NCBI RefSeq assembly: GCF_001275135.1
Contig: NZ_LFQU01000013.1
Span: 35,292 to 99,291, forward strand
Direction: 5' to 3'
DNA length: 64,000 nucleotides
Origin: Xylanibacter rarus
Lineage (GTDB): Bacteria > Bacteroidota > Bacteroidia > Bacteroidales > Bacteroidaceae
In this document: positions 460-63,734 of the stretch, one piece after another
How positions within the stretch are numbered: position 1 is the stretch's first letter
Layout of the letters: every line of letters starts with the position of its first letter
Made by a program: the position numbers and the translations under genes
Notes under the pieces: model-generated
Database searches by the model: none
What the model saw: only the letters and a program-made list of their open reading frames with translations
What the model was told of the DNA's origin: nothing

Positions 460-853
460 CCGCTTGGCTACATGGTGAGGCCGTGCATACAGATATTTAT
501 GTTAACTTAACATTTGCCTAACTTCTCGTCGGCTGTCTGCCGTATGTAGTGCAGCTTTTTGTCTGTCTTTATTATGTTATGTAACAACTTGATATTCAGT
601 GCGTTGCAAAAGGCTGTCTTTTGGCTTGCAAAACGTGGCCTTTTGTCTTGTAAAAGCATACCTTTTACGAAGCAAAAGCTATCCTTTTGCAATGCGGTTG
701 ATGAAGAGTGGAAAAATATAAGCGTGCCAAACGATATCTAACTGTTGCAGAATGTTAAAACAGAAACCTCCATATCTGCTGCAAATAATGTTGCAAAAGA
801 TATGGATGCAGAATGTGTTTATCGCGTCAGATAACCCTTACCGGTTGTCATGC
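460..853. other. Convergent intergenic region with a dyad array
   Basis: No gene is supported between the receptor 3' end and the dgt 3' end. It holds the conserved one-sided flank (580-606) and the first four-unit dyad array (607-690). The rest is A+T-rich with no recognisable RNA gene. Confidence 0.6.
580..690 (+). repeat. Dyad array 1 (4 x 22 bp) with conserved flank
   Basis: Units start at 607, 629, 651 and 673, an exact 22-bp period. Each has a 7-nt arm like CAAAAGG, 4 variable bases, a complementary arm like CTTTTGC and 4 spacer bases. From first to last arm it spans 84 bp. The flank at 580-606 (TGTAACAACTTGATATTC followed by AGTGCGTTG) closely matches the flank of array 5 at 39403. 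Confidence 0.85.
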
Positions 854-2194
854 CTATACAATCGGCAGACTTATTCCGTTGATTTTCTGATAGATGTCGA
901 GCGCATACACGTCGGTCATGCCGCTGATATAGTCGATAACAGCCATGATGCGCGTTTCGAGGTCGGGCGCGCTGATGTCATACTGGCTGCTCACGCGGCT
1001 GATAAGCTGGCGCGAGTAGAACCGCTGCGGATTGACGGCCGCCTCGGTCATGACCTCCATCAGGCTGTCCATAATCTTAAAACCGCTCAGTTCGACGTCA
1101 AGCACAGGCTTGCTCTTGTAGATTCGCTTTTTCGAAAGTTCTGTGCAGTTGCGGTAAGCCTTAACCAGTCTGTCGTCGATGCTGTCGATAAGACTGCCGC
1201 TGAACTCGCCCCTCATGATCTCGTCTTCGTGCCTCATGAACGCGTCAACGCATGCCCTTTCGAGCGCGTTGATAACGCAGGCCCTCATGTATATCACCTT
1301 CTCGTTGTCGTCGGTTATCTCCTCGTCGTGAATCCTCTGCATGATATGATTTTGTCCCATTTCATCGAAGAAATCCAAGAAAAGCCGCTTTGTCTCCTCA
1401 TACGTTACAATCTTCAGCTTGTGGGCATCCTCAATGTCCATAATCTCGTAGCAGATGTCATCGGCAGCCTCTACAAGATACACCAGCGGATGGCGCGCAT
1501 ACTCGGCAGGACAGCCGTCGGCCGACTTGCGTATTATGCCGAGGTCGTCGGCAATGCGGCAGAATATGTCGGCTTCGGTGCTGAAAAATCCGAATTTACC
1601 GTGCCCCTTTTCCGCCAGAGCCGACGCAAAAGGATATTTCACGATAGACGCAAGCGTGGTGTAAGTCATCACGAATCCGCCGTCGCGACGCCCTTTGAAG
1701 CGGTGAGCAAGCAGGCGGAACGCGTTGGCGTTACCCTCAAAGTGAGTGATGTCGTTCCACAGTTCGGGGCTCAGCCTGTCTTTGAGATAAGCCCCCTTGC
1801 CCTCGGTGAAGAACGTCTGAATGGCCTTCTCGCCGGAGTGTCCGAACGGAGGGTTGCCCATGTCGTGCGCCAGGCATGCCGTGCTTACTATGGTGCCAAT
1901 CTGCGTGAACAGCGTGTCGGCCAGTTCGGGCCTTGTCTTCATAACGCAGTGGGCCACGTCGTTGCCGAGCGACATGCCCACGCTTGCCACTTCCAGGCTG
2001 TGAGTGAGGCGGTTATGTACGAAAATGCTGCCCGGCAGCGGGAACACCTGAGTCTTGTTCTGCATGCGGCGGAACGGCGCAGAGAATATCAGCCGGTCGT
2101 AGTCGCGCTTAAACTCAGAGCGGTCGTCGTGCCTTATGGCGTGGCGCGACTCCTGTCCGAGTCTTTTGTTCGATATAAGTTGTTTCCAGTTCAT
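854..2194 (-). CDS. dgt: dGTP triphosphohydrolase (dGTPase)
   Basis: This enzyme hydrolyses dGTP to deoxyguanosine and triphosphate, shaping dNTP pools. The 446-residue protein has the HD-domain signature: His65 in NRLTHSLEV, the His-Asp pair 110-111 in AHDMGNPPFGHSGE, and a later HFEGNAN segment. The N-terminus MNWKQLISNKRLGQE is typical of the family. I therefore prefer the ATG at 2194 over the adjacent ATG at 2197 and a longer one at 2224. A TAnnTTTG-type box on the minus strand lies at 2244-2251. The neighbour on the other side, dut, is divergent and also acts on nucleotides. Confidence 0.93.
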   Translation of the reverse strand: MNWKQLISNKRLGQESRHAIRHDDRSEFKRDYDRLIFSAPFRRMQNKTQVFPLPGSIFVHNRLTHSLEVASVGMSLGNDVAHCVMKTRPELADTLFTQIGTIVSTACLAHDMGNPPFGHSGEKAIQTFFTEGKGAYLKDRLSPELWNDITHFEGNANAFRLLAHRFKGRRDGGFVMTYTTLASIVKYPFASALAEKGHGKFGFFSTEADIFCRIADDLGIIRKSADGCPAEYARHPLVYLVEAADDICYEIMDIEDAHKLKIVTYEETKRLFLDFFDEMGQNHIMQRIHDEEITDDNEKVIYMRACVINALERACVDAFMRHEDEIMRGEFSGSLIDSIDDRLVKAYRNCTELSKKRIYKSKPVLDVELSGFKIMDSLMEVMTEAAVNPQRFYSRQLISRVSSQYDISAPDLETRIMAVIDYISGMTDVYALDIYQKINGISLPIV

Positions 2195-2243
2195 CATCTT
2201 TCTGCAAAATAAGGCCGTATGCACAATACGGCGGTTAGCTGCG

Positions 2244-2251
2244 CAAAAGTA
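2244..2251 (-). promoter_or_regulatory. Probable -7 box for dgt
   Basis: Reads TACTTTTG on the minus strand, matching the Bacteroidota -7 form TAnnTTTG. No clear TTTG -33 box is seen at the expected spacing. Confidence 0.45.
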
Positions 2252-2315
2252 ATCTAAAAATGGCTAAATTCTTTCTTTTTAGCGCTAAAAATACAATTAT
2301 GTAAATATAAATAGC

Positions 2316-2323
2316 TATTTTTG
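2316..2323 (+). promoter_or_regulatory. Probable -7 box for the dut operon
   Basis: TATTTTTG matches TAnnTTTG, about 115 bases before the dut start. The -33 element is not clear. Confidence 0.4.
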
Positions 2324-2437
2324 CACACAAATTAAAATAACGTAACCGGCAGCATGCCAGCTGTGGGCTGGCTGATGTCGGCATGTGGCGTCAGGCCTAG
2401 GCATGCGCCGTTAAAACCTAAAAAGCAGAATAAGACT

Positions 2438-2875
2438 ATGATACCCGTAAAAGTAATCAACAAAGGGCACCAGCCGCTTCCGGCATACGCCACGGCACAG
2501 AGTGCAGGTATGGATCTCAGGGCTAACATCGACGCCCCGATAACGCTGCGCCCCATGGAGCGCAGGCTGATACCCACGGGCCTCTACATAGCCCTGCCCG
2601 AAGGCTACGAGGCACAGGTGCGCCCGCGCAGCGGACTGGCCTTGAAGCACGGCATTACGGTGCTTAACACGCCGGGAACGATAGACGCCGACTACAGGGG
2701 CGAGGTGATGGTGCTGCTGATAAACTTTTCAGACACCGACTTCGTGATCAACGACGGCGAACGCATAGCCCAGATGGTCATTGCTCGCCATGAGACGGCA
2801 GAGTTTGTCGAGGTTAGCGTGCTCGATGAGACAGAGCGCGGCGCAGGCGGCTACGGCCACACCGGAGTGAAATAA
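2438..2875 (+). CDS. dut: dUTP diphosphatase (dUTPase)
   Basis: This enzyme converts dUTP to dUMP and pyrophosphate, keeping uracil out of DNA and feeding dTMP synthesis. The protein has 145 residues, normal for the trimeric family. All five motifs are visible: AGMDLRA (23-29), RPRSGLA (62-68), [10 protein letters not shown] (80-89, with the catalytic Asp), GERIAQMVI (107-115) and the P-loop-like [10 protein letters not shown] (134-143). The last usually reads GFGSTG, so Tyr and His are substitutions here. The ATG at 2438 is chosen because homology begins at MIPVKVIN; the upstream extension looks non-coding. It leads an operon with the TPR lipoprotein 28 bases downstream. Confidence 0.95.
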
Positions 2876-2903
2876 CAGCAAGGTTCGCATTTCAACAATT
2901 CAG

Positions 2904-4679
2904 ATGAACAGACTAACATCATACATCCTTGTGCTGCTTTCGGCGGCGGCTGTCATCACAGGCTGCAGCCACGGCACGGCAACAAAGACAGGCGCAGGCG
3001 GCACGGCGTCGCGCGGCATCGTGGTTCCGCCCATAAGCCATAACGACAGCATGCGCTTCAAGATATTCTATTTTGAGGCTGTCAAGCAGCAGGTGGCCGG
3101 CAACTACGACGCGGCTTACGACTTGCTGAGCCACTGTCTCGACATAAACCCCAATGCAGCAGAGGCCTACTTTATGATGTCGTCTTACAGCGGAGTGCTC
3201 TATGGCGACACCGCCGCACTTGAAGACGTTAAGAAGGCTGCCGAGCTCGACCCCGAGAACAACACCTATCTTGAGCGTCTCGGCACGGGCTACATACGCA
3301 TAGGCAACCTCGACGAGGCCATAAAGGCATACGAGAAGTTGGCACACAACAGTCCGGAGCGCTCAGACGTGCTCGACATCCTTAACCAGCTGTATCTCAG
3401 AAAGAAAGACTACGACAATGTGATAAAGACCATTGAACGCATCGAAGCCCTTGAAGGCAGCAGTGAGCAGACAGCCCTGTCGAAGATGCAGGTGTACTCG
3501 CTGCAGGGCAAGAAGGAGGAGGAGTTCAATGAGCTGAAGTCGATGTCGGAGAAATATCCCAACGACATGAACTACAGGGTGATGATGGGCAACTGGCTTC
3601 TGCAGAACGGCAAGCCCGACGAGGCATACAGCCAGTATATGGACGTGCTGAAGCAAGACCCCGAGAACCCCATGGCACGCATGTCGATGATAGACTACTA
3701 CAGGACTACGGGCAGCACGGCGCAGGCCGACTCGATACAGGAGACAATGCTCGTGAATCCCAAGACGCCCGTCAGCACAAAGATGATACTGATGAGGCAG
3801 GTGGTGGCAGACAACGAGAAGAACGGAGGCGACAGCACACAGGTGCTCAACCTCTTTAAGAGAATACTGAAACAGCCGCAGGAAACATCCGACATGGCCG
3901 AGCTGTATGCAGCATACATGACGCTGAAGAAGATGCCGCAGGATTCTATCACCAAGGTGCTGGAGACCGTGCTGACCATCTCGCCCGACAACGCGGCTGC
4001 CCGTCTGCAGCTGATACAGACAGTGTGGAACGAGAAAGACTTCGACAAGGTTATAGAGCTGTCGCGCCAGGCGCTCGACTATAATCCCGACGAGATGGCC
4101 TTCTATTATTTCCTCGGGCTTGCCTATGTGCAGAAAGACGATGACGACAACGCCCTCGAAGTGTTCAGAAAGGGCGTCAGCCAGATTGACGACGAGAGCA
4201 ACCCCGACATCGTGTCTGACTTTTATGCCATCATGGGCGACATTCTTTACAGCAAGGGGCAGGAGCAGGAAGCCTATGCCGCTTATGACAGTTGCCTGCA
4301 GTGGAAGGACGACAACTTCGGCTGTCTGAACAACTATGCCTACTATCTGTCGGAAACGGGCAAAAATCTCGACAAGGCCGAGCAGATGAGCTATCGCACG
4401 GTGCAGGCCGAACCTGACAACTGCACATACCTTGACACCTATGCATGGATACTGTTCAAGCAGAAAAAATATAAAGACGCGCAGCCGTATATCGACATGG
4501 CCATCAAGAACGACACCACAAACAGTGCGGTGCTTCTCGAGCATGCAGGCGACATCTACTACATGAACGGCGACGCCGGCAAGGCCCTTGAATACTGGCG
4601 CGAGGCGCTTGAGAACAGTGACGAAGAGAATAAGGTGCTTATAAGAAAAATAAAACTGAAGAAATATGTTGAGAAATAG
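2904..4679 (+). CDS. TPR-repeat lipoprotein
   Basis: A 591-residue protein with a lipoprotein signal peptide (VITGC, lipidated Cys21). The rest is mostly tetratricopeptide repeats, for example NYDAAYDLLSHCLDINPNA, NLDEAIKAYEKLAHNSPE and, near the end, KYKDAQPYIDMAIKND and DAGKALEYWREALE. It is probably tethered at the periplasmic face as a protein-interaction scaffold; partners are unknown. Its stop overlaps the next lipoprotein start by 14 bases, so the two are probably translationally coupled. Its place between dut and an EnvC-like gene is an arrangement I believe is common in Bacteroidales. Specific function is unassigned. Confidence 0.88.
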   Translation: MNRLTSYILVLLSAAAVITGCSHGTATKTGAGGTASRGIVVPPISHNDSMRFKIFYFEAVKQQVAGNYDAAYDLLSHCLDINPNAAEAYFMMSSYSGVLYGDTAALEDVKKAAELDPENNTYLERLGTGYIRIGNLDEAIKAYEKLAHNSPERSDVLDILNQLYLRKKDYDNVIKTIERIEALEGSSEQTALSKMQVYSLQGKKEEEFNELKSMSEKYPNDMNYRVMMGNWLLQNGKPDEAYSQYMDVLKQDPENPMARMSMIDYYRTTGSTAQADSIQETMLVNPKTPVSTKMILMRQVVADNEKNGGDSTQVLNLFKRILKQPQETSDMAELYAAYMTLKKMPQDSITKVLETVLTISPDNAAARLQLIQTVWNEKDFDKVIELSRQALDYNPDEMAFYYFLGLAYVQKDDDDNALEVFRKGVSQIDDESNPDIVSDFYAIMGDILYSKGQEQEAYAAYDSCLQWKDDNFGCLNNYAYYLSETGKNLDKAEQMSYRTVQAEPDNCTYLDTYAWILFKQKKYKDAQPYIDMAIKNDTTNSAVLLEHAGDIYYMNGDAGKALEYWREALENSDEENKVLIRKIKLKKYVEK

Positions 4680-5562
4680 CAGCAGGCTGTTACGCAGCCT
4701 CGTCTTTTTGGTTGTGTGCCTCGCCGTGGTTTCGTGCGGCACAAAGAAGGCCGCCATGTCCGGCGGCTCGTCTTCGTCGTCAGGCAATAACGATGTTGAA
4801 AGCATACTGGCCCGCAAGACAGACTTCCTGCGCAAGGTCTACGACAATGAAGTGTATGCCCAGGCCATATCGGCTAAGATAAAGTTCAGCATCAACACCG
4901 GTTCAAAAGATCTGTCGGTGTCGGGCTCGCTGAAGATGAAGAAGGACGACGTGATACGCATACAGCTCACTCCGCTCGGACTGATGGAGGCCGGACGCAT
5001 TGAGTTTACAAAGGATTACGTGCTCGTGGTAGACCGCATCAACAAGGAATATATCAAGGCTTCATACAGCGATGTCGACTTCCTGCAGCGCAACGGGCTC
5101 GACTTCTACGCCCTGCAGGCACTGCTGTGGAATCAGCTCTTCGTGCCCGGACAGCAGAAGATAACCGACTCGGCCCTCAAGAATTTCGGCGTTACGTTCA
5201 ACGATGCCGTGGCCAACACGCTCGTTACGCTGAAGCGCGGCAGCATGAGCTATGTGTGGCAGGCCGACAAGACGAGCGGACAGATCAAGGCTGTGGACGT
5301 AACATACAGCAGCCCGTCTACAGGCAGCACATCAGTGAAATGCACTTACGGAACATTCAAGCCGCTCGGTACGAAGAAATTCCCTACTGACATCACCCTG
5401 ATGATGAAGAGCAGCGCGGTGAAGAGAGCCAACGGCGTGGCCGTGAACATATCAATGAGCGGACTCGACACGTCGGCCGACTGGGAGACGCGCACCTCTG
5501 TGTCGGATAAATATAAAAAGGTGGATCCGCAGGACGTAATTAACAGAATCTTAAAGTTATAA
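4666..5562 (+). CDS. DUF4292-type lipoprotein
   Basis: 298 residues with a lipoprotein signal (VVSCG, Cys24) and a Ser/Gly-rich linker. The domain resembles DUF4292 (LolA/LolB-like fold) by layout: strands such as IKFSINTGSKDLSVSGSLKMKKDD, then IRIQLTPLGLMEAGRIEFTKDYVLVVDRINKEY. That pattern recalls outer-membrane lipoprotein carrier folds; this family assignment is from memory. The start overlaps the TPR gene by 14 bases, and the stop codon abuts the ATG of the EnvC-like gene, so these form one transcript. A role in lipoprotein or envelope maintenance is inferred. Confidence 0.8.
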   Translation: MLRNSSRLLRSLVFLVVCLAVVSCGTKKAAMSGGSSSSSGNNDVESILARKTDFLRKVYDNEVYAQAISAKIKFSINTGSKDLSVSGSLKMKKDDVIRIQLTPLGLMEAGRIEFTKDYVLVVDRINKEYIKASYSDVDFLQRNGLDFYALQALLWNQLFVPGQQKITDSALKNFGVTFNDAVANTLVTLKRGSMSYVWQADKTSGQIKAVDVTYSSPSTGSTSVKCTYGTFKPLGTKKFPTDITLMMKSSAVKRANGVAVNISMSGLDTSADWETRTSVSDKYKKVDPQDVINRILKL

Positions 5563-7143: not shown

Positions 7144-7202
7144 CCATCGTACTAATGCGATAATATTTAGTAAGACACGGCCGCTGCGACGGTCTGCCAA
7201 CA

Positions 7203-7258
7203 AAGCCGAGACACATTTTTGTCAGATAATTTTCTGTCTGGCGTTTGTGTGTCGGCTT
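7203..7258. other. Hairpin between the EnvC-like gene and murG
   Basis: Arms 7203-7215 and 7246-7258 pair over 13 bp with one mismatch. An inner CAGATA/TGTCTG pairing adds structure. There is no clear T-run after it, so it may be a Rho-type or attenuating structure. Confidence 0.4.
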
Positions 7259-14677: not shown

Positions 14678-14809
14678 ATAAAATTGATCCTTATGTTATG
14701 CTGCATGGCTTATCACGAAGAGTCAACTTTTATCAGCGATACTCCATGTTTCGGTCAACCTAAGTCAGTAAATAGTCAACATTCTTTATTATTGCCGTTT
14801 TCATTTTTC

Positions 14810-14872
14810 CGAAAGGCATACTTTTGCACCCTGAAAGGCCACGTTTCAGCATGCAAAAGCATACCTTTTGCA
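14810..14872. repeat. Dyad array 2 (3 clear units of 22 bp)
   Basis: Units begin at 14810, 14832 and 14854, with arms such as CGAAAGG/CTTTTGC, TGAAAGG/GTTTCAG and CAAAAGC/CTTTTGC. A decayed fourth unit could occupy 14788-14809. Confidence 0.75.
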
Positions 14873-15101
14873 TTGCCGTTAGGCCTATTGTATGGCTCTG
14901 AATAAATCCTACGTAAACTGTAATTTATTAGAAATGAACCGAAAAGAACTTACTAAAATAAATAACGACTTTAGTTTTTGCCTACATTTGCAAACAAATA
15001 CACGGACTATTTAGCATAACGATAAAATATTCCTGACTGCATTGATAATTTGTCTTGCGTGATGTGAAAATGTTTAAGCAATAATCTTTAAATCATAAGC
15101 T

Positions 15102-18183: not shown

Positions 18184-19239
18184 AATATTATATTATTTGT
18201 GCATAGTGATGTTTCAGCCGTTATGTCCGCAAGCATCTTTCCGTCTGCATGTCGGCTTTCTCATGCCTGTCTTCTTCGTGCCGTATGGCTAGGCAGGGCA
18301 GGGGAGCATGCAAATATACGAATCTTAATTTATAATTCATAATTCACAATTCATAATTCACGATCGGCTTTCGCCTAACTTTGTTTCGTAATTCATAATT
18401 CCTGTTAGTGCAATGCCGCACATTGTTCTTTGGTTCTTTTCGCTCAGCTTCATTATGGTCTTTTGTCAGCTTTTCTTACATGATTCAGTCCACTTAACGC
18501 TCTCAGAATGGCGATGCTCGTCACGAATCCGTGATTTGGCGCGAAAAACGGCGAAAAATGCGCGTTTTCACTAACCTGTTGTCGTTCAGTGCTTTATGCT
18601 GTTTTAAAGACAAAAGCTTAACAGTTAAAAAATATTACTTTGCCGTTTACGGTGCAAAAGTGGCCCGTTTCCGTTGCAAGACATGCCTGTTTTTTATCCG
18701 TAGACCATGCTTTTACGTCTCAAAAAGTTCATGTTTAAGCCTTTTATTCAGTCTTGTCTGTGAACGTATGTTAATGCTCCGCCGCTTTTGTCTGAATTAA
18801 TTAACATCCGTTATACTCTGTTTTTCTAGATTGGAAAAATATTTTGTCCTAAGTTTTTACCACGAAGTGATGTTCCTTAAGTGAAGAGCAGGCAGGCGCT
18901 GAGCGCAATTAAAAAATAAAGATCAAAACCTCTTACGAAAGTGAAGAATGAAGAATTCAAATGTATTATATAAGGAAATCCTGGCAGGCACTACAGCATC
19001 ATATCAGCATCTGTAAAGGCTCAGAGTGTCTAATATTTATACACCGCTGTCAAATATTTAGACACATGCAAAAATACGAAATACGGTTATCTCGTTGATT
19101 AACAGAGAGATACATATCATGGCATGATTTTAGCAATAATTTTATTGAATTGAATGTAAAATAAAGCCACTGTGCAGCAGACAAGACACCGACACAAATC
19201 CGGCAATTCTGCGTGCATGGCGAAAAGAGATATTTGCTT
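18184..19239. other. Divergent intergenic region
   Basis: No gene is supported in this 1-kb gap. It holds low-complexity ATTCATAATT filler (about 18325-18400), a decayed four-unit dyad array (18655-18738), a half-arm-like GTGAAGAATGAAGAATTC word (18941-18958) and leader sequence of the following outer-membrane protein. An open frame at 18531-18800 crosses the decayed array and looks spurious. Confidence 0.55.
18655..18738. repeat. Dyad array 3, decayed (4 x 22 bp)
   Basis: Arms are eroded, but units still fall at 18655, 18677, 18699 and 18721, an exact 22-bp register over 84 bp. Examples are CAAAAGT/CGTTTCC and CGTAGAC/CTTTTAC. Confidence 0.5.
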
Positions 19240-31104: not shown

Positions 31105-31226
31105 TAAAATTTATGGTTTGTAGTTTAATTTAACATGTCTGAATATTGTTGTGTAGTCTTTTTGTGTCAGATGGCCTGAATGTAGGCTCTGCATGGTGAT
31201 TGTGGCGCGGCTGTATTGCTGCCGTG

Positions 31227-31310
31227 CAAAAGGTATGCTTTCGGGCTGCAAAAGGCCACCTTTTGGCGTGTAAAAGACGGCAAATCGCACGCTAAAAGAT
31301 GGCCTTTTGC
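31227..31310 (-). repeat. Dyad array 4 (4 x 22 bp)
   Basis: Units at 31227, 31249, 31271 and 31293 span 84 bp. It begins 14 bases downstream of the M20 gene's 3' end. The third unit has a broken right arm (AAATCGC). A weak version of the conserved flank lies on its right side, read on the minus strand. Confidence 0.85.
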
Positions 31311-31323
31311 AACTTACTGAAAG

Positions 31324-32433
31324 TCAAAGCGTTATGCGGCTACCGTCCGCAGGCGCTGCGGCGGGCAGAATGTCGGCTCCGTCGAGCAGGCTGATGTATG
31401 TGTTTATGGCATCTTCTATCTCGCCGATGCCTATGTATTCGTCGGCAGAATGTGAGCGTGCCGACTGTCCCGGACCGAGTTTGAACGAGGGGAAGGGCAT
31501 CAGTGCCTGGTCTGACAGCGTGGGCGAGCCGAACGGCGTCATGCCCATGGCCTTGCACCTCTGTATCAGAGGGTTGTCCTCGCTTATGTGCGACGACGAC
31601 AGGCGGAACGAGCGCGCCTTCAGTTCGCTCTTCATCTTGGATGACAGAAAGCTGAACACGTCTTCGTTTCTGTAGAATTCGTTGGTCCTTATGTCTATCG
31701 TAAACCTGCATTCGTCGGGTATCACGTTGTGCTGCGTGCCGGCGTTTATTATTGTTACGTTCATCACCGTGGGGCCGAGCAGCGGGCTCACCTTCTCGAA
31801 CTTGTAGCCGCGCAGCCAGCAGATGTCGTCGAGAGCCTCATATATGGCGTTGATGCCTTCGCCCCTGGCGGCATGTCCCGACTTGCCCCTGGCCGTGGCG
31901 TCTATCACCATCAGTCCTTTCTCGGCTATGGCCGGCTGCATGCCCGTGGGCTCGCCCACGATGGCCACGTCTGCGGCAGGCAGCAGCGGCAGGGCGCGCC
32001 TTATGCCGTTCTCGCCCGACACTTCCTCCTCGGCCGATGCAAGCCATATGGTGTTGTAGCTCTGCGGGCGCGACGTTATGTGCCTGAAGGCCTGCAGCAG
32101 GGCAACGAGTCCGCCGCCGCAGTCGTTGCTGCCCAGTCCGTACAGCCTTCCGCCGCATACGTCAGGGCTGAAGGGATTGCGCGTCCACGAGCTCACCGGC
32201 TTCACCGTGTCGATGTGTGCGTTGAGCAGCAGCGTTGGCTTCGAGCAGTCAAATCCGCTGCTCTTAATCCATATGTTGTTGCCTTCGCGGCTGTATTCGT
32301 AGCCATATCCGCTTATCGCGCGTGCCATTACGTCTGCCGCTGCGCTCTCGTCGCGGCTCACCGACGGCGTGGCTATCAGCTCCTTAAGCAGTTCTATGGC
32401 GTCGTTGAGATATTCTTTCTGTGTCATAATCAT
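31324..32433 (-). CDS. M20-family metallo-hydrolase (ArgE/DapE-like)
   Basis: 369 residues with the M20 zinc signature: NAHIDTV (His73 and Asp75), GLGSNDCGGGL, and SAEEEVSGENG with the catalytic Glu pair. A dimerisation domain includes RGKSGHAARGEGINA. In Bacteroidota such proteins often act as acyl-ornithine/citrulline deacetylases in arginine synthesis, or in lysine synthesis, but no arg or dap genes are nearby. The substrate is therefore left open. A strong promoter lies at 32501-32531. Confidence 0.85.
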   Translation of the reverse strand: MIMTQKEYLNDAIELLKELIATPSVSRDESAAADVMARAISGYGYEYSREGNNIWIKSSGFDCSKPTLLLNAHIDTVKPVSSWTRNPFSPDVCGGRLYGLGSNDCGGGLVALLQAFRHITSRPQSYNTIWLASAEEEVSGENGIRRALPLLPAADVAIVGEPTGMQPAIAEKGLMVIDATARGKSGHAARGEGINAIYEALDDICWLRGYKFEKVSPLLGPTVMNVTIINAGTQHNVIPDECRFTIDIRTNEFYRNEDVFSFLSSKMKSELKARSFRLSSSHISEDNPLIQRCKAMGMTPFGSPTLSDQALMPFPSFKLGPGQSARSHSADEYIGIGEIEDAINTYISLLDGADILPAAAPADGSRITL

Positions 32434-39361: not shown

Positions 39362-39402
39362 CGCTCGTCTTCGCATACAGTGACGCAGGAAAAATACGCA
39401 TG

Positions 39403-39513
39403 TGTAACATATTGATATCCAGCGCGTTGCAAAAGGCCATGTTTTGCGCTCCAAAAGACCGTCTTTTATCATGCAAAAGACCACCTTTTAGAGCCTGAAA
39501 CATGGCCTTTTGC
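39403..39513 (+). repeat. Dyad array 5 (4 x 22 bp) with conserved flank
   Basis: Units at 39430, 39452, 39474 and 39496 span 84 bp. The flank 39403-39429 (TGTAACATATTGATATCC then AGCGCGTTG) matches the flank of array 1 in the same orientation. Confidence 0.85.
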
Positions 39514-39971
39514 ATTACGGCTGCACAGAGCATGCGCCATGACATCAGCCTGACGCTGCTCTCATCTCAAATACGGCATCAGTGTTCAGCCTGTATTTTT
39601 GCCTTATGTTGAGCAGATTTTCGTTATAATTTTCATCTGCATAGCAGGCTGTGTACAGAAAAGCTGACATCAACACGGCGACATAAAACAAGACGCCGGC
39701 TGAAAACATGAATGAACAAAGTAGATAAAATTATATTCGGAATAATGCCCGGTTAAGGCTTGTCCCTGTGCCGTGGACTCCTTTCGGTCCTTAATCCGTG
39801 CTCGTATGAGGCTGCCTCAGCCAGCCCTTGCAGCCGTCATGTTACGCCCTGCGGCGGCCTTTAGGCATGGCTCCGCAGTTTGATTTCTGCCTGCATGGCG
39901 AGCTTTTTGATTATTATCGTTTAATTAATCAAAAAAAAGGAATAGCCCAATGTTATTCAAATTATTTTTTC

Positions 39972-44894: not shown

Positions 44895-45296
44895 TGCTTT
44901 TTTGTTTTTAATTTTACGTTATTTTGTTTGTGAGTACTCGTAATTGTAAATGTTACGGCGACAGAAAACTTGCATGGGGGTATGGTTAAAACTTGTAAAA
45001 ATATATTTTCTACACTGAAAACTCTGTCATCATCTGCCGTAGTCAATGCTTTTCTGCCGGCCTTTTTTTGCTGCCTTTCACCGGCGTTGCATAGACCTGG
45101 ATTGTGGTGATTTAGGCTGTTGTATGGCATTGCCATTGAGACTGATTTCTAAAAGACCGCCTTTCGCCTTCTGAAAGGCCACATATTGCACGCTAAAAGG
45201 CCACCTTTTAGAAGCTAAAAGATGGCCTTTTGTAACGTGTTGGATGTCAGACTGTTGCGCGGTTGCGTGCTTTGCCTTTGCAGGGCGGCGTTTTTC
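44895..45296. other. Intergenic region with dyad array 6
   Basis: Upstream region of the lipoprotein plus a four-unit dyad array. No gene is supported; an 81-codon minus-strand frame (44891-45136) has no protein-like features. Confidence 0.6.
45151..45258 (-). repeat. Dyad array 6 (4 x 22 bp) with conserved flank
   Basis: Units at 45151, 45173, 45195 and 45217 span 84 bp. The second unit's right arm is degenerate (ATATTGC). The conserved flank is on the right, read on the minus strand (45235-45258), so the element is inverted relative to arrays 1 and 5. It begins 63 bases downstream of radC. Confidence 0.85.
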
Positions 45297-45989
45297 CTAC
45301 AGCCGTCCCTCCTCAGAATAGCTGTAATATCGTCCGTCGGTGATTATCAGATGGTCGAGAAAGTGCAGGCGCATTATCTCGCACGCCTTCTTCATGCGCT
45401 GCGTCAGCCTGTCGTCGTCGCCGCTCGGCATGGGGTTGTTGCTCGGATGGTTGTGGCAGAGCACCACGATGGTGGCGTTGCACAGCAGTGCGTTCTTTAT
45501 CACCACGCGTATATCCACCGCCGTCTCGGTTATGCCGCCGTGCGACAGCTGCATGTCTTTTATCAGCTTGCAGTTTTGGTTCATCAGCAAGATCCATGCC
45601 TCCTCTTCGCTCAAGTCCTGCATCTTTGGGTGCATAAACTCGTAGATTGCAGCTGCCGAGTCGAGCCGCTTGCGCTCTTCGGCCTTCTCGGCCTGCCGGC
45701 GCTTGCCCAGCTCGCAGGCTGCCAGTATGGTTACGGCCTTGGCCGGTCCCAGGCCCTTGTAGTTGCCGGAGGTGAGCTGGCCGATGCTCATCTTGCCGAG
45801 AGAGTTAAGGTTGTTGTTGCAGTCGTTGAGCACTCTCTTCATGAGGTCTACCGCACTTTCTTCGGGTGAGCCCGAGCCTATGAGTATAGCCAGCAGTTCG
45901 GCGTTCGACAGCGCTTGTGCCCCGAGCCGCATCATCTTTTCGCGTGGCCGGTCGTCCTCGGCCCATTGGTTTATGCTTAGTTTTGACAT
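45297..45989 (-). CDS. radC: RadC-family JAB-domain protein
   Basis: 230 residues. An N-terminal UPF0758 helix-hairpin-helix region (REKMMRLGAQALSNAELLAILIGSG and GLGPAKAVTILAACELGKR) is followed by a JAB/MPN domain with HNHPSNNPMPSGDD, the zinc-site motif. Long annotated as DNA repair, the family's real function is uncertain. It lies downstream of a glycosyltransferase but is separated from it by the second four-helix-bundle element. Confidence 0.92.
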   Translation of the reverse strand: MSKLSINQWAEDDRPREKMMRLGAQALSNAELLAILIGSGSPEESAVDLMKRVLNDCNNNLNSLGKMSIGQLTSGNYKGLGPAKAVTILAACELGKRRQAEKAEERKRLDSAAAIYEFMHPKMQDLSEEEAWILLMNQNCKLIKDMQLSHGGITETAVDIRVVIKNALLCNATIVVLCHNHPSNNPMPSGDDDRLTQRMKKACEIMRLHFLDHLIITDGRYYSYSEEGRL

Positions 45990-53815: not shown

Positions 53816-53950
53816 CCGGTGACAGGCATAGCTACGGCATAAAGAAACATCTCAATAAACACGCTAAAGCGCCCACAGGCATGCTGCCGCTTGCCGGTAT
53901 CCGCTGCCTGTGGCACGGCTTTTACGCCGGGCATATGGCATCAAGTTTTA

Positions 53951-54060
53951 CGAAAGGCCACCTTTTGGATTCCGAAAGGTGGCCTTTTGCCATCTAAAAG
54001 GTGCCCTTTTGCAGGGCGAAAGATGGTCTTTTGCAACGCGTTGACAGTCAGATCGTTGCA
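53951..54060 (-). repeat. Dyad array 7 (4 x 22 bp) with conserved flank
   Basis: Units at 53951, 53973, 53995 and 54017 span 84 bp. The conserved flank lies on the right (54035-54060), read on the minus strand. It sits between the NigD-like and GIN-domain genes. Confidence 0.87.
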
Positions 54061-54194
54061 CACCCCGTTGCAAGGCGCATCACAGACGGATGCAAATTAA
54101 TTCATGCCGGAATGAAAAAAAGTTAGTTTTTCATGTCACAAATGGCAACGTTCTGCGTACTGATAACAGAAGAAACATTAAAAATAAGATTATG

Positions 54195-56816: not shown

Positions 56817-56839
56817 CGACTTTATACATAACTACGGAT

Positions 56840-57352: not shown

Positions 57353-57365
57353 AAATAATGTAACC

Positions 57366-57776
57366 ATGATACGCAGACTGATTCTAATATTGTTTTTTAC
57401 CTTAGGCACGCTGCTTGCCGCCATGGCCCAGAACAGCATCGACAGGCAGGTGGAACGCTATTCGGCGATAGGGCAGAGCAGATTTACGTCGGCAGTGGAG
57501 CGCGATCCGCGCACACGCAGGGTGCAGAAGGTGGTTAAGGTGCTCGAGCTTTACGACAAGGGTGTAAAGGCCCTCATTGATGCGTTCAAGGCTGAATCGT
57601 CCAACGGCGACTTCACGGAAAAACGCGACAGTAAGGGCCTCACGATGATTCTTACCACAAGCCGTCCGCGTCAGAACCGTGTCTATATGCTTAAATGCGA
57701 CTCGCCTTACAGCTTCGGTGCGTACGCCGGCAGTTACGGACACGCAAAGGTTACGATAATAATAAGGTATAAATAA
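57366..57776 (+). CDS. Small secreted protein of unknown function
   Basis: 136 residues with a signal peptide (cleavage near AMAQ). After it, NSIDRQVERYSAIGQSRFTSAVERDPRTRRVQKVVKVLEL, then a beta-like end. I recall similar DUF5024-type small proteins in Bacteroidales, but am not sure. It is the third gene in the sigma/anti-sigma unit, so it may be a sensor, effector or target. Confidence 0.65.
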   Translation: MIRRLILILFFTLGTLLAAMAQNSIDRQVERYSAIGQSRFTSAVERDPRTRRVQKVVKVLELYDKGVKALIDAFKAESSNGDFTEKRDSKGLTMILTTSRPRQNRVYMLKCDSPYSFGAYAGSYGHAKVTIIIRYK

Positions 57777-57805
57777 AAAACGCCCGTGGCCAATGGCTGC
57801 GGGCG
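57774..57805 (-). terminator. Terminator-like hairpin reading on the minus strand
   Basis: CGCCCG (57781-57786) pairs with CGGGCG (57800-57805), with an inner GGCCA/TGGC pairing. An A-run on its left is a T-run on the minus strand. It could end the minus-strand lysozyme operon, although 243 bases separate them. On the plus strand it lies just after the secreted protein. Confidence 0.5.
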
Positions 57806-58048
57806 AATATGTTTCTTTGGCCGCTGTCTTGCGGCAGGCATGCCGGCGTGGCATGCTTATTATGCTTTTGTTACAGTCTGATTAGTCTTACTCTCGACCA
57901 GAGATTCTGATTTCTTTATGACCGGTTCCGGGAGCTGTTTATGTCGTTGAGGCATCATATGGCCATGACATATCATGCTCTCGGAGCCGGTCTGGCGTTT
58001 GTCTTTCGGCGTCTTCTGCAGGAATCTCCATGCCGCCGCTTCACAAGT

Positions 58049-59248: not shown

Positions 59249-60291
59249 GGCAGCAAGTTTTTAAGTGCGAGGCCGAAGTTTCCCGTGCCTGTTATTCTTC
59301 CGTTATAGCTTATGCCCATCATGCGGCCGTCCGACGTATATATGGCAGCCCCGTCTGGAGCCAGCATCGGCGGAATGTCGTGTCGGCTTTTGCCCGTTGC
59401 CTTGCCGCTGAATGTGGTCGCCTTTGCCCCAATGACGTCATAGCGGCTGAGCATGCAGCCCGGATATGATGCCACGATGATGCCTCTTTCTGCATCTGTC
59501 GCAGGCGTAAACCACTGATGAAGATACGTCGGCGATACATTGTCGGGCGTTTGCTTGTCTGATGTCTGTATTATTCTGAATGGCTTTTCGCTTGCAGGAG
59601 TTATCGTGTTGCAGGCTATTCTTACGGTGTGTCCTGCCGTGTCTTTATGCAGCAGGGTGTATTTGCTCACCAGTCTTATGGCTGCATTTTTGCCCGTTTG
59701 GGCTTTCCTGATGATTTCCAGGGCTTTTTCGGCCTGTTCTTTCTGCTGTTTCAGCCGTCCGTCAAGATAGGCCATCGTGTTGTATCCGTCGTCGTTTACG
59801 TTGTGGACGCTCAGATAGTATCTCAGTTCCTCGTCCTTTTTGCTTAGCGATTTTATAGCACTTTCAAGTCTTTCGGCCGTGTTCTTTATCACGTTTCCGA
59901 TGTTCTTGTTTGCAGCTGCCAGTGTCTTGTAGGCCATGCTGTCTGGGTCGGTTGTCAGAATCATGCCGTGACACGACGGCATGAAGGCATACTTGTTCAC
60001 CCAGCAGCCGTTGATTATGCTCCGCTTGGTTACCGACGAGTCGGCCGAAAGCATGATGTTGTCAGACATGCAGCTGTCTGTCAGCGCGTCGAACCATGCC
60101 ACGGGCTTGCCCGAAACCGTGAGTTCGTAGTAAGACTTGTGCTCAATCAGCGCTGCCCCGCGTTCCATCTTTTTTGTTGAGCGCGGCATTAATGACATGA
60201 CGTATATAACAACTACAATCGCCACCGGCACTGCCGGCAGCGATTGTAAGATTATACGTGATGTTCGCTTTCTGTTAGTCGATTTCTTCAT
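59245..60291 (-). CDS. Membrane-anchored protein, possibly a degenerate trypsin-like peptidase
   Basis: 348 residues from the ATG at 60291. There is one N-terminal transmembrane helix (about 15-35), then NKYAFMPSCHGMILTTD, a coiled segment (about 130-190; KNIGNVIKNTAERLESAIKSLSKKDEELR) and an end GAAIYTSDGRMMGISYNG. This end resembles the GxSGGPV…DGxVVGI region of trypsin-like proteases but lacks the serine, so an inactive relative is suggested. It overlaps the inositol-phosphate synthase stop by 17 bases, indicating an operon with it and the lysozyme. Confidence 0.6.
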   Translation of the reverse strand: MKKSTNRKRTSRIILQSLPAVPVAIVVVIYVMSLMPRSTKKMERGAALIEHKSYYELTVSGKPVAWFDALTDSCMSDNIMLSADSSVTKRSIINGCWVNKYAFMPSCHGMILTTDPDSMAYKTLAAANKNIGNVIKNTAERLESAIKSLSKKDEELRYYLSVHNVNDDGYNTMAYLDGRLKQQKEQAEKALEIIRKAQTGKNAAIRLVSKYTLLHKDTAGHTVRIACNTITPASEKPFRIIQTSDKQTPDNVSPTYLHQWFTPATDAERGIIVASYPGCMLSRYDVIGAKATTFSGKATGKSRHDIPPMLAPDGAAIYTSDGRMMGISYNGRITGTGNFGLALKNLLP

Positions 60292-61576
60292 CAGCCTCGT
60301 AGCCTCCCATCTCGCGGATTGCATTCTTCAGCATTGTGTACTGCTTGAACAGGTCGTTTACGGCCTCTTCGCCCTTTGTATAGTCGTGCATAGGGCTCTT
60401 CAGGTAGAAGCTGAGGAAGCGCTGTATGCCGTAGCGTCCGGCTCTTGCTGCCAGGTCGCTGAGCAGACAGAGGTCGAGCAGCAGCGGAGCTGCAAGGATA
60501 GAGTCGCGGCAGAGGAAGTTTATCTTTATCTGCATCGGGTAGCCCATCCATCCGAAGATGTCGATGTTGTCCCATCCTTCCTTGTTGTCGTTGCGTGGAG
60601 GATAGTAGTTGATGCGCACCTTGTGGTAGATGTCGCCATACAGGTCGGGCTGTTTGTCGGCTTTGAGTATTGTTTCGAGTGTAGACAGCTTGCTCACCTC
60701 CTTTGTACGGAAGTTCTCGGGCTCGTCGAGCACAAGACCGTCGCGGTTGCCGAGAATGTTGGTTGAGAACCAACCGCTCATTCCGAGGCAGCGTGTACCG
60801 ATGATAGGAGCAAATCCACTCTTGACCAGTGTCTGTCCTGTCTTGAAGTCCTTGCCGGCGATAGGCATCTTGGTCTTCTCGGCCATTTCCCACATTGCAG
60901 GTATGTCCACAGTTGTGTTAGGAGCACCCATTATGAAGGGAGCGCCCTCTGCGAGTGCGGCGTAGGCATAGCACATAGACGGTGCGATGTGCTCGCGGTC
61001 GTCTTCCTTCATTGCTTTTTCAAGAGCGGCGAGCGTGCCGTGTACCGGCTCATATACAGGTACATAGATTTCGGTAGATGCAGCCCAGATAACAACGATT
61101 CTTGCGCAGCCGTTTTTCTCCTTGAACGAGCGTATGTCCTCGCGCAGCTGTTCAACCATTTCCCAGCGTGTGGCAGCGTCTTTCACGTTGTCGCCGTCGA
61201 GTCTTTTGGCATAGTTCTTGTCGAAGGCAGCCTTCATCGGAACTATCTGCTCAAGCTCTTCACGCACGGGGTTGATGTCTTTCTCCTTGAGCACCTCGGC
61301 ATACATTGCTGCCTGATATGCGTTTTGGGGATAAACGTCCCATGTACCGAATACGATGTCGTTGAGGTTAGTAAGCGGAACGATGTCTCCGTATGCGAGA
61401 TATTTCTTGTTTTCGCCTTTTCCGACGCGTATTTTGTCATACTGTGTCATTGAGCCTACAGGCTTTGCAAGTCCTTTGCGGGCCATCAAAACACCGGTCA
61501 TGAATGTTGTGGAAACGGCTCCACAACCGACCACTAAAATACCCAGTTTACCTTCTGCAGGTTTTACGTTTGCCAT
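60275..61576 (-). CDS. Inositol-3-phosphate synthase
   Basis: Makes 1L-myo-inositol 1-phosphate from glucose 6-phosphate with NAD, the first step to inositol lipids. The 433-residue protein has the Rossmann start KLGILVVGCGAVSTTFMTGVL, the NAD/active-site stretch FIMGAPNTTVDIPAMWEMAE, GKDFKTGQTLVKSGFAP and later WFSTNILGNRDGLVLDEPENFRTKEVS, typical of this family. In Bacteroides such genes support inositol sphingolipids. The other lipid genes of that pathway are not here; instead a membrane protein and a lysozyme share the transcript. A -7-like box is at 61642-61649. Confidence 0.93.
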   Translation of the reverse strand: MANVKPAEGKLGILVVGCGAVSTTFMTGVLMARKGLAKPVGSMTQYDKIRVGKGENKKYLAYGDIVPLTNLNDIVFGTWDVYPQNAYQAAMYAEVLKEKDINPVREELEQIVPMKAAFDKNYAKRLDGDNVKDAATRWEMVEQLREDIRSFKEKNGCARIVVIWAASTEIYVPVYEPVHGTLAALEKAMKEDDREHIAPSMCYAYAALAEGAPFIMGAPNTTVDIPAMWEMAEKTKMPIAGKDFKTGQTLVKSGFAPIIGTRCLGMSGWFSTNILGNRDGLVLDEPENFRTKEVSKLSTLETILKADKQPDLYGDIYHKVRINYYPPRNDNKEGWDNIDIFGWMGYPMQIKINFLCRDSILAAPLLLDLCLLSDLAARAGRYGIQRFLSFYLKSPMHDYTKGEEAVNDLFKQYTMLKNAIREMGGYEADEEID

Positions 61577-61641
61577 TTCTGTTTCTTTTTAAAAATTTTT
61601 ATTATTGTTTTTTATAATCAGTTCCTTTCGTTTGAATTGTG

Positions 61642-61649
61642 CAAATGTA
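61642..61649 (-). promoter_or_regulatory. Probable -7 box for the inositol-phosphate synthase operon
   Basis: TACATTTG on the minus strand, about 65 bases before the start codon. Confidence 0.5.
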
Positions 61650-61949
61650 ATAAAAACTTTTTATGATTTATTGGTTTTTATATATTTTTGTATACTTTTC
61701 GTTGATTTTGCCTTATTATGCCGTAAAAAAGGTATATGCGGTTTGGTTTTTCTTTTGTAATTTTGTGGCGGCATTGAACAATGCTTACAAAAGGCTTTGC
61801 CGTTTATGGCATGTCTTTCTTGGGGCACCGGCTGTTTGTGCTGCCATGCAGGCGGAGTCGGTGCCATGCCGCAAGGGGTGTCAGTGGCCCGTTCCGGGCG
61901 TCTGACAATGAAGCCCCTGCATAGTTTACACCTTATTATATTATATGTT

Positions 61950-63122
61950 ATGGCTAAATTTAATTTTGACGAGATAGTCGACCGAAGAGGGAGCGACTGT
62001 GTTAAATGGGACGAGACAGATGTCGACGGCATGCTGCCGATGTGGGTGGCGGATATGGACTTCCGCACGGCTCCTGCCATAATCGAGGCGCTGCAGCGCC
62101 GTGCCGCTCATGGTGTGTTCGGTTATGAGCATGTGCCCCAATCTTATTATGCGGCCGTAGTTGGCTGGTTTGCCCGCCGTCATGGCTGGACTTTCCGTCC
62201 CGAATGGATCATTTACACTACGGGAGTGGTGCCGGCTGTGTCGGCTGTCATCAAGGCCGTTACCGTGCCGGGCGACAAAGTGCTGGTTCAGACGCCCGTC
62301 TACAACTGCTTCTTCTCGTCTATCCGTAACAACGGATGCATAATAGAGGAGAACAAGCTGGTTTATTCCGACGGAACGTATTCTGTTGATTTTGAGGACT
62401 TTGAGCGCCGCGTGGCTGATCCTTCGGTAAAGGCTTTCTTGCTTTGCAACCCTCATAATCCGGCAGGAAGAGTGTGGACGCCCGACGAACTGCGCCGCAT
62501 GGGCGAAATATGTCTGCGCCACGGAGTGTTCGTTATTGCCGACGAGATACATTGCGACATAGTGATGCCGGGTTATAAGTATACGCCTTTTGCATCGCTG
62601 TCTGACGAGTTTCTTGCAAATTCGGCCACATGTACGGCCCCGACTAAGACGTTTAACATTGCCGGACTGCAGATAGCCAACATCATAGCCGCCGATGACA
62701 CTGTCCGTAAGAAGATCGACCGCGCGATAAATATCAACGAGGTGTGCGATGTCGGTCCATTTGGCGTGGTGGCTCTTCAGGCTGCATATAATGAGAGCGA
62801 AGGCTGGCTCGACGAGCTTTTGCCGTATATCAAGTCTAATTATGATTACCTTTGCGACTTCTTTGCTGCTCATATGCCTATGCTTAAGGTGCTTCGTCTT
62901 GAGGGCACTTATCTCGTTTGGGTAGACTGCACGGCGCTTGGCCGCACGTCTTCAGACATTATCAGCGAACTGAAGGACGGCGAAAAGCTGTGGCTTAACG
63001 GCGGAGATATTTATGGAGAAACCGACCGGCCGTTTGTCCGCATAAACATAGCTTGCCCGAGAGCAACGCTTGTTGACGGACTTAACCGCCTGTTACATTA
63101 TGTAGAGCGCATCGTTAAATGA
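61950..63122 (+). CDS. MalY/PatB-family PLP lyase (putative C-S lyase)
   Basis: 390 residues, start at MAKFNFDEIVDRRGSDCVKWD. The fold-type I aminotransferase motifs are LPMWVADMDFRTAPAI, CNPHNPAGRVWTPDELRRM, VIADEIHCDIV and the Schiff-base Lys in TAPTKTFNIAGLQIAN. PatB/MalY relatives are cystathionine beta-lyase-like and release pyruvate, ammonia and thiol from cysteine S-conjugates. The exact substrate is unknown. The terminator hairpin overlaps its stop codon. Confidence 0.9.
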   Translation: MAKFNFDEIVDRRGSDCVKWDETDVDGMLPMWVADMDFRTAPAIIEALQRRAAHGVFGYEHVPQSYYAAVVGWFARRHGWTFRPEWIIYTTGVVPAVSAVIKAVTVPGDKVLVQTPVYNCFFSSIRNNGCIIEENKLVYSDGTYSVDFEDFERRVADPSVKAFLLCNPHNPAGRVWTPDELRRMGEICLRHGVFVIADEIHCDIVMPGYKYTPFASLSDEFLANSATCTAPTKTFNIAGLQIANIIAADDTVRKKIDRAININEVCDVGPFGVVALQAAYNESEGWLDELLPYIKSNYDYLCDFFAAHMPMLKVLRLEGTYLVWVDCTALGRTSSDIISELKDGEKLWLNGGDIYGETDRPFVRINIACPRATLVDGLNRLLHYVERIVK

Positions 63123-63136
63123 TGCGCTCTTTTTGT
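63104..63136 (+). terminator. Terminator overlapping the lyase stop codon
   Basis: A perfect 10-bp stem (63104-63113 with 63121-63130, AGAGCGCATC) is followed by TTTTTG. The stop codon straddles the loop and right arm. Confidence 0.85.
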
Positions 63137-63734
63137 ATATGTTCATGGGCTTTTGGCGTTTCATTTTCCTGTTTGCGTAAGTTTCAGAAAGGGTAGCTTT
63201 TCTTTCCTTTTTCAAAAGTTATGCTTTTGCGTTCCGTTTGTTATCCTTTTATCGTGTAAAAGGTATGCTTTTGTCCCCTAAAAGGTGCCCTTTTGCAGAC
63301 AGCCCTCTGATTGGTGTGTTTTGCACTTGGCATAAAGCCGGCTTAAAAAGCCTATAACGTCCATTCTGTCAGCGTTTTATGGCGTTGCTGACTGCCCGTA
63401 TGGCTTGCCGCACAGCCTTGTATTAATCCTGCCGTTTATGAATATATCTGCTTCATGACAGGCTTGACCATAGCTTTGGCTGTCGTAACCGGCATCCGGC
63501 CGGCTGTTTTCTTCCTTTGGAATTCAAACACCTTTAAATTCTGCCATCGGTCTTTGAATTTTGCCATTCTCGTATGATTCTCATCCATCTTTGCCGGTTT
63601 TATTTCCCGTTCCTGTGTCATAAGTCTGCTTATTTCTTTTGTAAAATATAATAATGTGAATGGTGTAAGATTGTCACTCAATATGTAAACGACTGTTAAA
63701 ATGTATCTAAAATTAAAACTTTTTTCAGAAAACA
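63123..63734. other. Intergenic region with dyad array 8
   Basis: It contains array 8 and A+T-rich sequence. A 99-codon minus-strand frame (63436-63735) is not supported as a gene. Confidence 0.5.
63213..63296. repeat. Dyad array 8 (4 x 22 bp)
   Basis: Units at 63213, 63235, 63257 and 63279 span 84 bp, with arms such as TAAAAGG/CTTTTGC. A further degenerate unit (AGAAAGG/CTTTTCT) at 63186 is out of register by five bases. Confidence 0.82.

What the first reader, a model, noticed from the sequence alone, without database searches (positions are those of the whole stretch)
580..63296. A family of fixed-length four-dyad intergenic elements (84 bp, exact 22-bp period)
At eight intergenic sites (607, 14810, 18655, 31227, 39430, 45151, 53951, 63213) the sequence is built of 22-bp units: a 7-nt arm like CAAAAGG, 4 bases, the complementary arm, 4 bases. 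Seven sites hold four units in exact register over 84 bp, including one badly decayed copy; the eighth has three clear units. The fixed number and register, with free variation of the 4-base parts, argue against random slippage and for a selected architecture or a copied element. Most lie just downstream of a gene. I know of no named family with this layout.
Basis: seen in the sequence. Interest (0 to 1): 0.85.

Follow-up and report, generated by a model that had tools for sequence, protein, structure and literature searches.

The report
Phased A/T-tract arrays between Prevotella genes
Between its genes this Prevotella bacterium carries about a hundred copies of a short DNA element made of a leading palindrome and, usually, four units whose A/T runs recur exactly every 11 bases; in related species those runs hardly change while the letters between them do, so the spacing itself probably matters, perhaps for DNA wrapping.

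Summary
Seven of the eight sites belong to one family; 18655 is a separate low-copy repeat. The family is genome-wide (180 two-unit hits, 0 for the control; 102 copies in 1.2 Mb read, partly chosen around hits). A copy is an asymmetric head dyad plus, usually, four 22-bp units; 81 of 84 copies show no further unit, though whole-unit losses and gains occur. The deeper period is 11 bp: eight A/T tracts exactly 11.0 bp apart on alternating strands. The arms of a unit do not covary (336 units) and elements have no orientation bias, which argues against RNA hairpins. At 14 putative ortholog sites of two Prevotella genomes, tracts mismatch in 2.7% and unit centres in 26%; centres differ by species ("dialects"). 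The family is not unnamed: in the P. intermedia group the block appears to be the core of PINSR, a published 188-bp repeat of unknown function; its internal layout is not described in the sections read. The core matches 121 of 299 genomes of the genus and 3 of 247 sampled across the order, own genome included. Best reading: a REP/BIME-like DNA element selected as a phased wrapping or docking site. RAYT transposases were not found in five array-rich genomes.

The parts
576..699 (+). Element 1: head dyad 581-607 (GTAACAACTTGATATTCAGTGCGTTGC), four 22-bp units 606-693
   Evidence: score 114.6; best own-genome model hit, E 7.6e-24 (this site was in the model)
14779..14902 (+). Element 2, degenerate: three clear units 14809-14874, decayed fourth 14875-14896, no clear head
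   Evidence: score 43.8; nulls 10.9 and 31.1
31217..31340 (-). Element 3: four units 31223-31310 (one half-unit decayed), head at the high end 31311-31340
   Evidence: score 107.3
39399..39522 (+). Element 4: head about 39404-39430, four units 39429-39516
   Evidence: score 117.7
45140..45263 (-). Element 5: four units 45146-45233, head 45234-45263; just 3' of a RadC-family gene (45297-45989, minus)
   Evidence: score 124.9
53941..54064 (-). Element 6: four units 53947-54034, head 54035-54064; between a NigD-like gene and a DUF2807 gene
   Evidence: score 115.2
63203..63326 (-). Element 7: four units 63209-63296, one half-unit decayed, head not recognisable; a near-twin with similar flanks lies on contig C36 (L208)
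   Evidence: score 51.0, helped by the twin
18640..18673 (+).
   Evidence: family score -6.8; 5 copies of the other repeat with at most 3 mismatches

Best explanation
A dispersed, REP/BIME-like intergenic DNA element of Prevotella that works at the DNA level: eight A/T tracts spaced exactly 11.0 bp on alternating strands, with G/C-richer stretches between them, put A/T minor grooves on one face of the helix over about 88 bp. This favours wrapping or binding by a topology or nucleoid protein (gyrase-like wrapping, an HU-like protein, or an unknown symmetric binder) near gene ends. The head dyad would set the polarity. Unit centres are exchanged among units and copies and become alike within a species. 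Shown: the anatomy, genome-wide family, retention at putative ortholog sites, slow tracts, lack of arm covariation and of orientation bias, species-specific centres. Inferred: that the constraint reflects wrapping or protein docking, which protein, and how centres are exchanged.
For: Exact 11.0-bp spacing of the tracts and AA/TT periodogram peaks at 11.0-11.1 bp. In 672 own-genome half-sites A/T is kept at 99.0, 98.7 and 99.7% at core positions 3-5; of 117 changes there 99 are A>T, i.e. A/T content rather than one base is kept, though most of these fall in two discrete half-site classes and are not independent events. Putative ortholog copies (14 pairs): tract mismatch 12/448 against centres 102/392 and right end 138/644; composition-matched control 9/432 against 120/783 for other A/T runs of the same elements. 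A conserved-4/variable-7 alternation repeated eight times is hard to make by gene conversion alone (inference). No arm covariation; orientation against tandem transcription 25:28 and 24:23. Divergent gene pairs depleted in G084, p=0.006. Predicted bend above dinucleotide shuffles on average (71 and 60 against 44 degrees; parameters recalled). E. coli gyrase sites have 10.75-bp periodic GC arms and are over-represented in BIME-2 (PMC6379681, passages).
Against: No binding, transcript or topology data. Predicted curvature is modest: 15% (G084) and 21% (own) of shuffles reach the median element, and both mean bends lie below the 95th percentile (82 degrees) of random 100-bp G084 DNA. RATATG half-sites contain a TpA step, expected to weaken A-tract bending (general knowledge). 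Divergent depletion was not significant in the own genome (p=0.70). 178 of 299 genomes of the genus gave no match under stricter filters (64 of the 131 more complete ones), and 9 of 26 orthologous flanks have no called four-unit element, so the element looks dispensable. Dependence between units of one copy is not explained by wrapping.
Confidence: 0.45

Rival explanations
1. Selfish or passive repeat: an old MITE-like or otherwise amplified sequence without host function; similarity of copies reflects amplification and later conversion between copies.
For: Imperfect terminal inverted repeats TGTAAAnATnnTT in G084 (98 of 104 copies have both TGTAAA and TTTACA); presence/absence between species; whole-unit loss; centres alike within species.
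Against: No target-site duplication signal; TGTAAA left of the head in 1 of 84 own-genome copies; tracts about ten times slower than centres at putative ortholog sites; among 7 lone end-like sites in 800 kb of G084 stretches only one inward-facing pair, 172 bp apart, so no sign of a parent IS there.
Confidence: 0.27
2. Array of sites for a sequence-specific DNA-binding protein whose specificity, read from the unit centres, differs by species (dialects).
For: Centre words are species-specific: CCGTAGG/CCTACGG 0 of 424 units in G084, 69 of 188 in P. falsenii; GCGGCTC/GAGCCGC 89 against 0. Other species use other words in the same frame. Unit-1 centre CCTATTG is unchanged in 12 of 14 ortholog pairs.
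Against: In the own genome centres are very diverse (65 five-mers in 336 units), unlike a specific operator; tracts, not centres, are the slow part.
Confidence: 0.15
3. RNA element: four hairpins acting as terminator, attenuator or 3' stabiliser of transcripts.
For: 3' bias between tandem genes (35 of 47 and 38 of 53); units are dyads; unit 4 complements unit 2 or 3 more than expected in G084 (91 of 106, 73.8 expected) and P. falsenii (41 of 47, 35.6 expected); units 1-2 and 3-4 weakly complementary in the own genome. A published screen lists palindromic candidate structured RNAs of Bacteroidetes, mostly with predicted terminators (PMC8040213, passages); their sequences could not be compared.
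Against: No compensatory pairing at any of 8 arm positions in 336 units; no orientation preference; no Rfam match at the sites at gathering thresholds.
Confidence: 0.1
4. Simple tandem repeat maintained by replication slippage.
For: Unit number varies from 2 to 7 in a minority.
Against: Four units in most copies with sharp edges on both sides, a conserved head, mostly full-length 124-position hits in other species among those listed.
Confidence: 0.03

Closest known systems
[quoted passage not shown] 2015, PMC4755523; abstract, sections 2.3 and 3.4 read in full, passages elsewhere)
   Same: Intergenic, 177 and 184 copies in two strains, judged non-coding, about three quarters of sites shared between the strains; reported downstream of tnaA, where G084 (unnamed, presumed same group) has a head-plus-four-units copy; the conserved block in G084 is 186 bp between TGTAAA and TTTACA; P. 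falsenii, PCR-positive in the paper, has the same kind of block.
   Different: The sections read mention no 22-bp units or head dyad and say there are no terminal inverted repeats; imperfect ones are seen here. The own genome has only a core of about 116 bp. The layout is far wider than the intermedia/nigrescens group, and occurs in P. aurantiaca and P. pallens, which were in the PCR panel but are not among the four species named positive.
REP/BIME elements (E. coli BIME-2; gyrase data in PMC6379681, passages)
   Same: Dispersed intergenic palindromic units in short arrays; BIME-2 are intergenic and attract gyrase.
   Different: No RAYT found; equal 22-bp units with exact 11-bp A/T phasing; arms show no pairing constraint.
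GTAG/CGTC-tagged palindromic repeats (PMC3733652, start of abstract and one passage)
   Same: Short dispersed palindromes; CGTC type reported in Bacteroidetes.
   Different: Prevotella is not mentioned in the main text (term search); the tags were not formally tested here.
MITEs
   Same: Short, non-coding, many copies, imperfect inverted ends in G084.
   Different: No target-site duplication signal; no parent element seen in the DNA held; ends not seen in the own genome.
Palindromic candidate structured RNAs of Bacteroidetes (PMC8040213, passages)
   Same: 80-132 bp, palindromic on both strands, some confined to Bacteroidetes.
   Different: Sequences not compared (supplements not available), so overlap with this family is open; covariation and orientation here speak against an RNA role.

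Membership tests
PINSR | 188-bp repeat unit | tested here: met
   Met in G084: TGTAAA at -56 in 102 of 104 and TTTACA ending at +130 in 97 of 104 copies, a 186-bp block, nearly flat outside. Not met in the own genome, where conservation is confined to a core of about 116 bp
PINSR | about 180 intergenic copies | tested here: met
PINSR | copy downstream of tnaA in P. intermedia | tested here: inconclusive
PINSR | match to the published consensus (Fig. 4A) | not testable with these tools
   Figures and supplements were not available
PINSR | restricted to the intermedia/nigrescens group | tested here: not met
   The core model matches 121 of 299 genomes of the genus, including the own genome, which lacks the left PINSR end
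REP/RAYT system | a Y1 (RAYT) transposase in the genome | tested here: not met
   PF01797 not found in the 5 genomes with more than 100 core matches; the only hit of 6 genomes is P. koreensis, which has one marginal core match
REP/BIME | gyrase binding | not testable with these tools
   needs Topo-seq or binding assays
MITE | terminal inverted repeats | tested here: inconclusive
   imperfect, TGTAAAnATnnTT, in G084; left end not seen in 83 of 84 own-genome copies
MITE | target-site duplication | tested here: not met
   best excess z 2.1 over all tested lengths and offsets in 98 copies
RNA hairpin element / terminator | compensatory base changes between arms | tested here: not met
   336 units, 8 positions, p 0.08 to 0.98 for an excess of pairs
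RNA hairpin element / terminator | fixed orientation to transcription | tested here: not met
   25:28 and 24:23 between tandem genes

The most novel reading that the evidence does not exclude
A genus-wide DNA code of Prevotella nucleoid or topology control: about a hundred or more wrapping sites per genome, each usually eight 11-bp-phased A/T tracts under strong selection, whose intervening words evolve as species dialects in concert with an unknown partner protein.
Probability: 0.25. Interest if true: 0.8.

Novelty: new variant of a known kind. Interest (0 to 1): 0.6.

Why it matters
Dispersed intergenic repeats are often taken as selfish or functionless. Here the layout separates what is kept (A/T tracts at exact 11-bp spacing, usually four double units) from what drifts (centres, spacers, ends), which makes a specific DNA-level function testable. 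It gives the published PINSR repeat a likely anatomy, extends the core across the genus, and offers a natural series of species-specific variants on one frame.

Tried and rejected
RNA hairpins: disfavoured on arm covariation and orientation; the weak unit-to-unit complementarity is kept as a point for them. RAYT-driven REPs: not supported. Strong intrinsic curvature as the whole story: only moderately above shuffles and within the range of random DNA. Gene conversion as sole cause of tract conservation: disfavoured by the 4/7 alternation and the A/T-run control. Site 18655 as a decayed member: rejected. Clean empty sites with target duplications: none found. Of the nine G084 copies without a called P. 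falsenii counterpart, four were aligned: tnaA (n=65) and n=74 show no element but the alignments are not clean junctions; n=88 and n=52 prove, by eye, to be three-unit and two-unit copies. The five others were not aligned. The reversed-sequence control for unit counting is not valid, because the unit is nearly symmetric under reversal, and was discarded. The apparent depletion of self-complementary centres is at least partly an artefact of the central base facing itself and is not claimed. Literature: searches of the held open-access library, seen as listings, with passages of PMC5771137, PMC8040213, PMC3733652 and the PINSR paper, showed no description of the 22-bp or 11-bp layout in Prevotella; subscription papers and preprints are not held. 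Plasmid blastn with one site found nothing. Dropped rows: of 17 candidate ortholog pairs 3 were dropped for inconsistent strand; of the 14 used, 6 have both flanks matched to one place and 8 rest on one flank, one of these (n=31) with flanks pointing to two places. In the own genome 101 copies had full flanks and the 84 with score 60 or more were analysed. In the gene-context count, ORFs under 600 nt overlapping an element were dropped (before that step 31 of 106 and 18 of 84 elements fell in mostly short ORFs).
Full report
WHAT IS THERE. The window lies in an 85-contig, 3.79-Mb genome (G000). It shares its genus label with G017, whose tnaA contig has the same length (149,553) as the P. falsenii record NZ_BAJY01000002.1, so the host is taken to be a Prevotella in the sense of the genome collection. 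Leave-one-out profile scoring supports seven of eight sites; 18655 fails and matches a different repeat with five copies at up to 3 mismatches. Two of the seven are weak: 14810 (43.8) and 63213 (51.0, helped by a near-twin copy), against nulls of 10.9 in 375 kb and 31.1 in 1.2 Mb.

FAMILY. A self-complementary two-unit pattern (2 mismatches) gives 180 hits genome-wide and none for the backwards control. A model of head plus four units (R1, 12 own-genome sites) gives 150 scored matches, the cap, in the own genome, many arrays being counted on both strands. In the 1.20 Mb read (window, 19 stretches taken without knowledge of hits, 40 stretches chosen around hits) a profile finds 102 copies above the best reversed-sequence score; 101 had full flanks, and the 84 scoring 60 or more were analysed further.

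ANATOMY. One side carries a conserved head dyad, GTAAC-N4-TGATNTTCA-N4-GTTGC, abutting unit 1. Units of the form GCAAAAG-N5-CTTTTGC-N3 follow. In 84 copies, unit positions 1 to 4 reach 7 of 10 core matches in 99, 95, 92 and 81%, and the next positions on either side in 1 and 2%; 81 have no extension and 74 have all four units at 6 of 10 or better. Counted without anchoring on four, run lengths in the own genome are 2 (2), 3 (25), 4 (66), 5 (5), 6 (4) of 102; in G084 2 (2), 3 (2), 4 (82), 5 (29), 6 (1) of 116; in P. falsenii 2 (2), 3 (3), 4 (20), 5 (27), 7 (1) of 53, so on raw count five is commonest there. I read most of these fives as four units plus a weak in-phase fifth in the right end (inference from the A/T profile of G084). 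Four is thus the usual number, not a law. The A4 and T4 tracts lie exactly 11.0 bp apart, so the period is 11 bp on alternating strands, eight tracts in a row.

WHAT IS KEPT. Within units, Watson-Crick pairs between the two arms occur no more often than independence predicts at any of eight positions in 336 units. In 672 half-sites core positions 3-5 are A or T in 99.0, 98.7 and 99.7%; of 117 changes there 99 are A>T, mostly in two discrete half-site classes. Between G084 and P. falsenii, 17 candidate ortholog pairs were found and 14 used (6 supported by both flanks, 8 by one): mismatches are 12/448 in tracts, 36/224 in outer arm bases, 102/392 in centres, 43/168 in spacers, 113/392 in the head, 85/406 and 138/644 in the ends. 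Against A/T runs elsewhere in the same elements the tracts are also slow: 9/432 against 120/783.

DIALECTS AND EXCHANGE. In G084 and P. falsenii, centres are drawn from small species-specific sets that include both a word and its reverse complement: CCGTAGG or CCTACGG in 0 of 424 units of G084 and 69 of 188 of P. falsenii; GCGGCTC or GAGCCGC 89 against 0. In the own genome the set is larger (65 five-mers in 336 units). In G084 units 2 and 3 have the same inner centre in 1 of 106 copies (41.7 expected), and unit 4 is the complement of unit 2 or 3 in 91 (73.8 expected); in P. falsenii the complement is seen in 41 of 47 (35.6 expected), while equality of units 2 and 3 is as expected (23, 25.1 expected). 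In the own genome units 1-2 and 3-4 are weakly complementary and units 2-3 less so than expected. Many of the loci printed from other species show the same frame, often with the head, and other words. Exchange between inverted units is the simplest source of complementary words (inference); long-range pairing is the alternative.

CONTEXT. G084: of 106 elements, 53 tandem, 38 convergent, 11 divergent, 4 at stretch edges; gaps of 250 bp or more without elements 43, 15, 22; divergent pairs depleted (p=0.006), convergent enriched (p=0.008). Own genome: of 84, 47 tandem, 15 convergent, 11 divergent, 7 edge, 4 inside ORFs; neither test significant (p=0.70, 0.60). Orientation relative to tandem genes is 25:28 and 24:23 (simple ORF caller). 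Of 26 G084 copies whose flank lies in the P. falsenii DNA held, 17 have a called element there and 9 do not; four of the nine were aligned: one has three units, one has two, two show none.

RANGE AND IDENTITY. In the genus 121 of 299 genomes match (67 of 131 more complete ones); in a sample of the order 3 of 247 match, namely the own genome, one with a single weak match and one with two overlapping weak matches (stricter filters). In G084 the conserved block is 186 bp with imperfect inverted ends, a copy lies downstream of tnaA, and P. falsenii has the same kind of block. These agree with PINSR, a 188-bp intergenic repeat with 177 and 184 copies in two P. intermedia strains, found downstream of tnaA and PCR-positive in P. 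falsenii (PMC4755523, sections 2.3 and 3.4). The consensus figure could not be compared, and G084 is unnamed, so the identity is strong but not final. The own genome shows TGTAAA left of the head in only 1 of 84 copies and no conservation beyond the core, so it carries the shared core rather than full PINSR.

MECHANISM. RNA pairing is disfavoured, and no RAYT was found in the array-rich genomes tested. The alternation of A/T and G/C at 11 bp resembles the 10.75-bp periodic arms of E. coli gyrase sites, which are over-represented in BIME-2 elements (PMC6379681, passages). Predicted bends average 71 (G084) and 60 degrees (own) against 44 in shuffles, a modest effect within the range of random DNA (95th percentile 82). 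I therefore favour a DNA wrapping or docking site with a partner not yet identified (0.45), ahead of a selfish repeat (0.27), a sequence-specific binding array (0.15) and RNA hairpins (0.10).

Noticed in passing
window 18640-18673; G000 C1:56095, C10:44674, C13:28421, C24:31796: A separate low-copy repeat (CTGCCGTTTACGGTGCAAAAGTGGCCCGTTTACG, 5 copies with at most 3 mismatches).
   Followed up: partly
window 63203-63326 and L208:13159 (G000 C36): These two copies are near-twins including their flanks, as after a duplication.
   Followed up: no
G000 contig C4 against C1: Very uneven density: about 20 arrays in 161 kb of C4 against about 5 in 438 kb of C1 among the capped list of model matches.
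   Followed up: no
G084 copies, L157-L196: Units 2 and 3 share the same inner centre in only 1 of 106 copies; two words are used in either order; the reason is unknown.
   Followed up: partly
L138, L143, L148, L153 (P. ihumii): Arrays with units around AAACATATATGTTT and, in part, a similar head dyad; a different variant of the layout.
   Followed up: no
L222:5176-5300: One array lies within a 1014-aa open reading frame.
   Followed up: no
L018:13125, L032:18985, L034:12745, L207:946: Other palindromes built on GGCCACTTTT / AAAAGTGGCC-like arms.
   Followed up: no
G200 loci L261, L267, L278: Some copies in a 4.2-Mb genome of the genus have TGTAAA-like ends, and L278 has the unit-1 word CCTATTG typical of G084 and P. 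falsenii.
   Followed up: no
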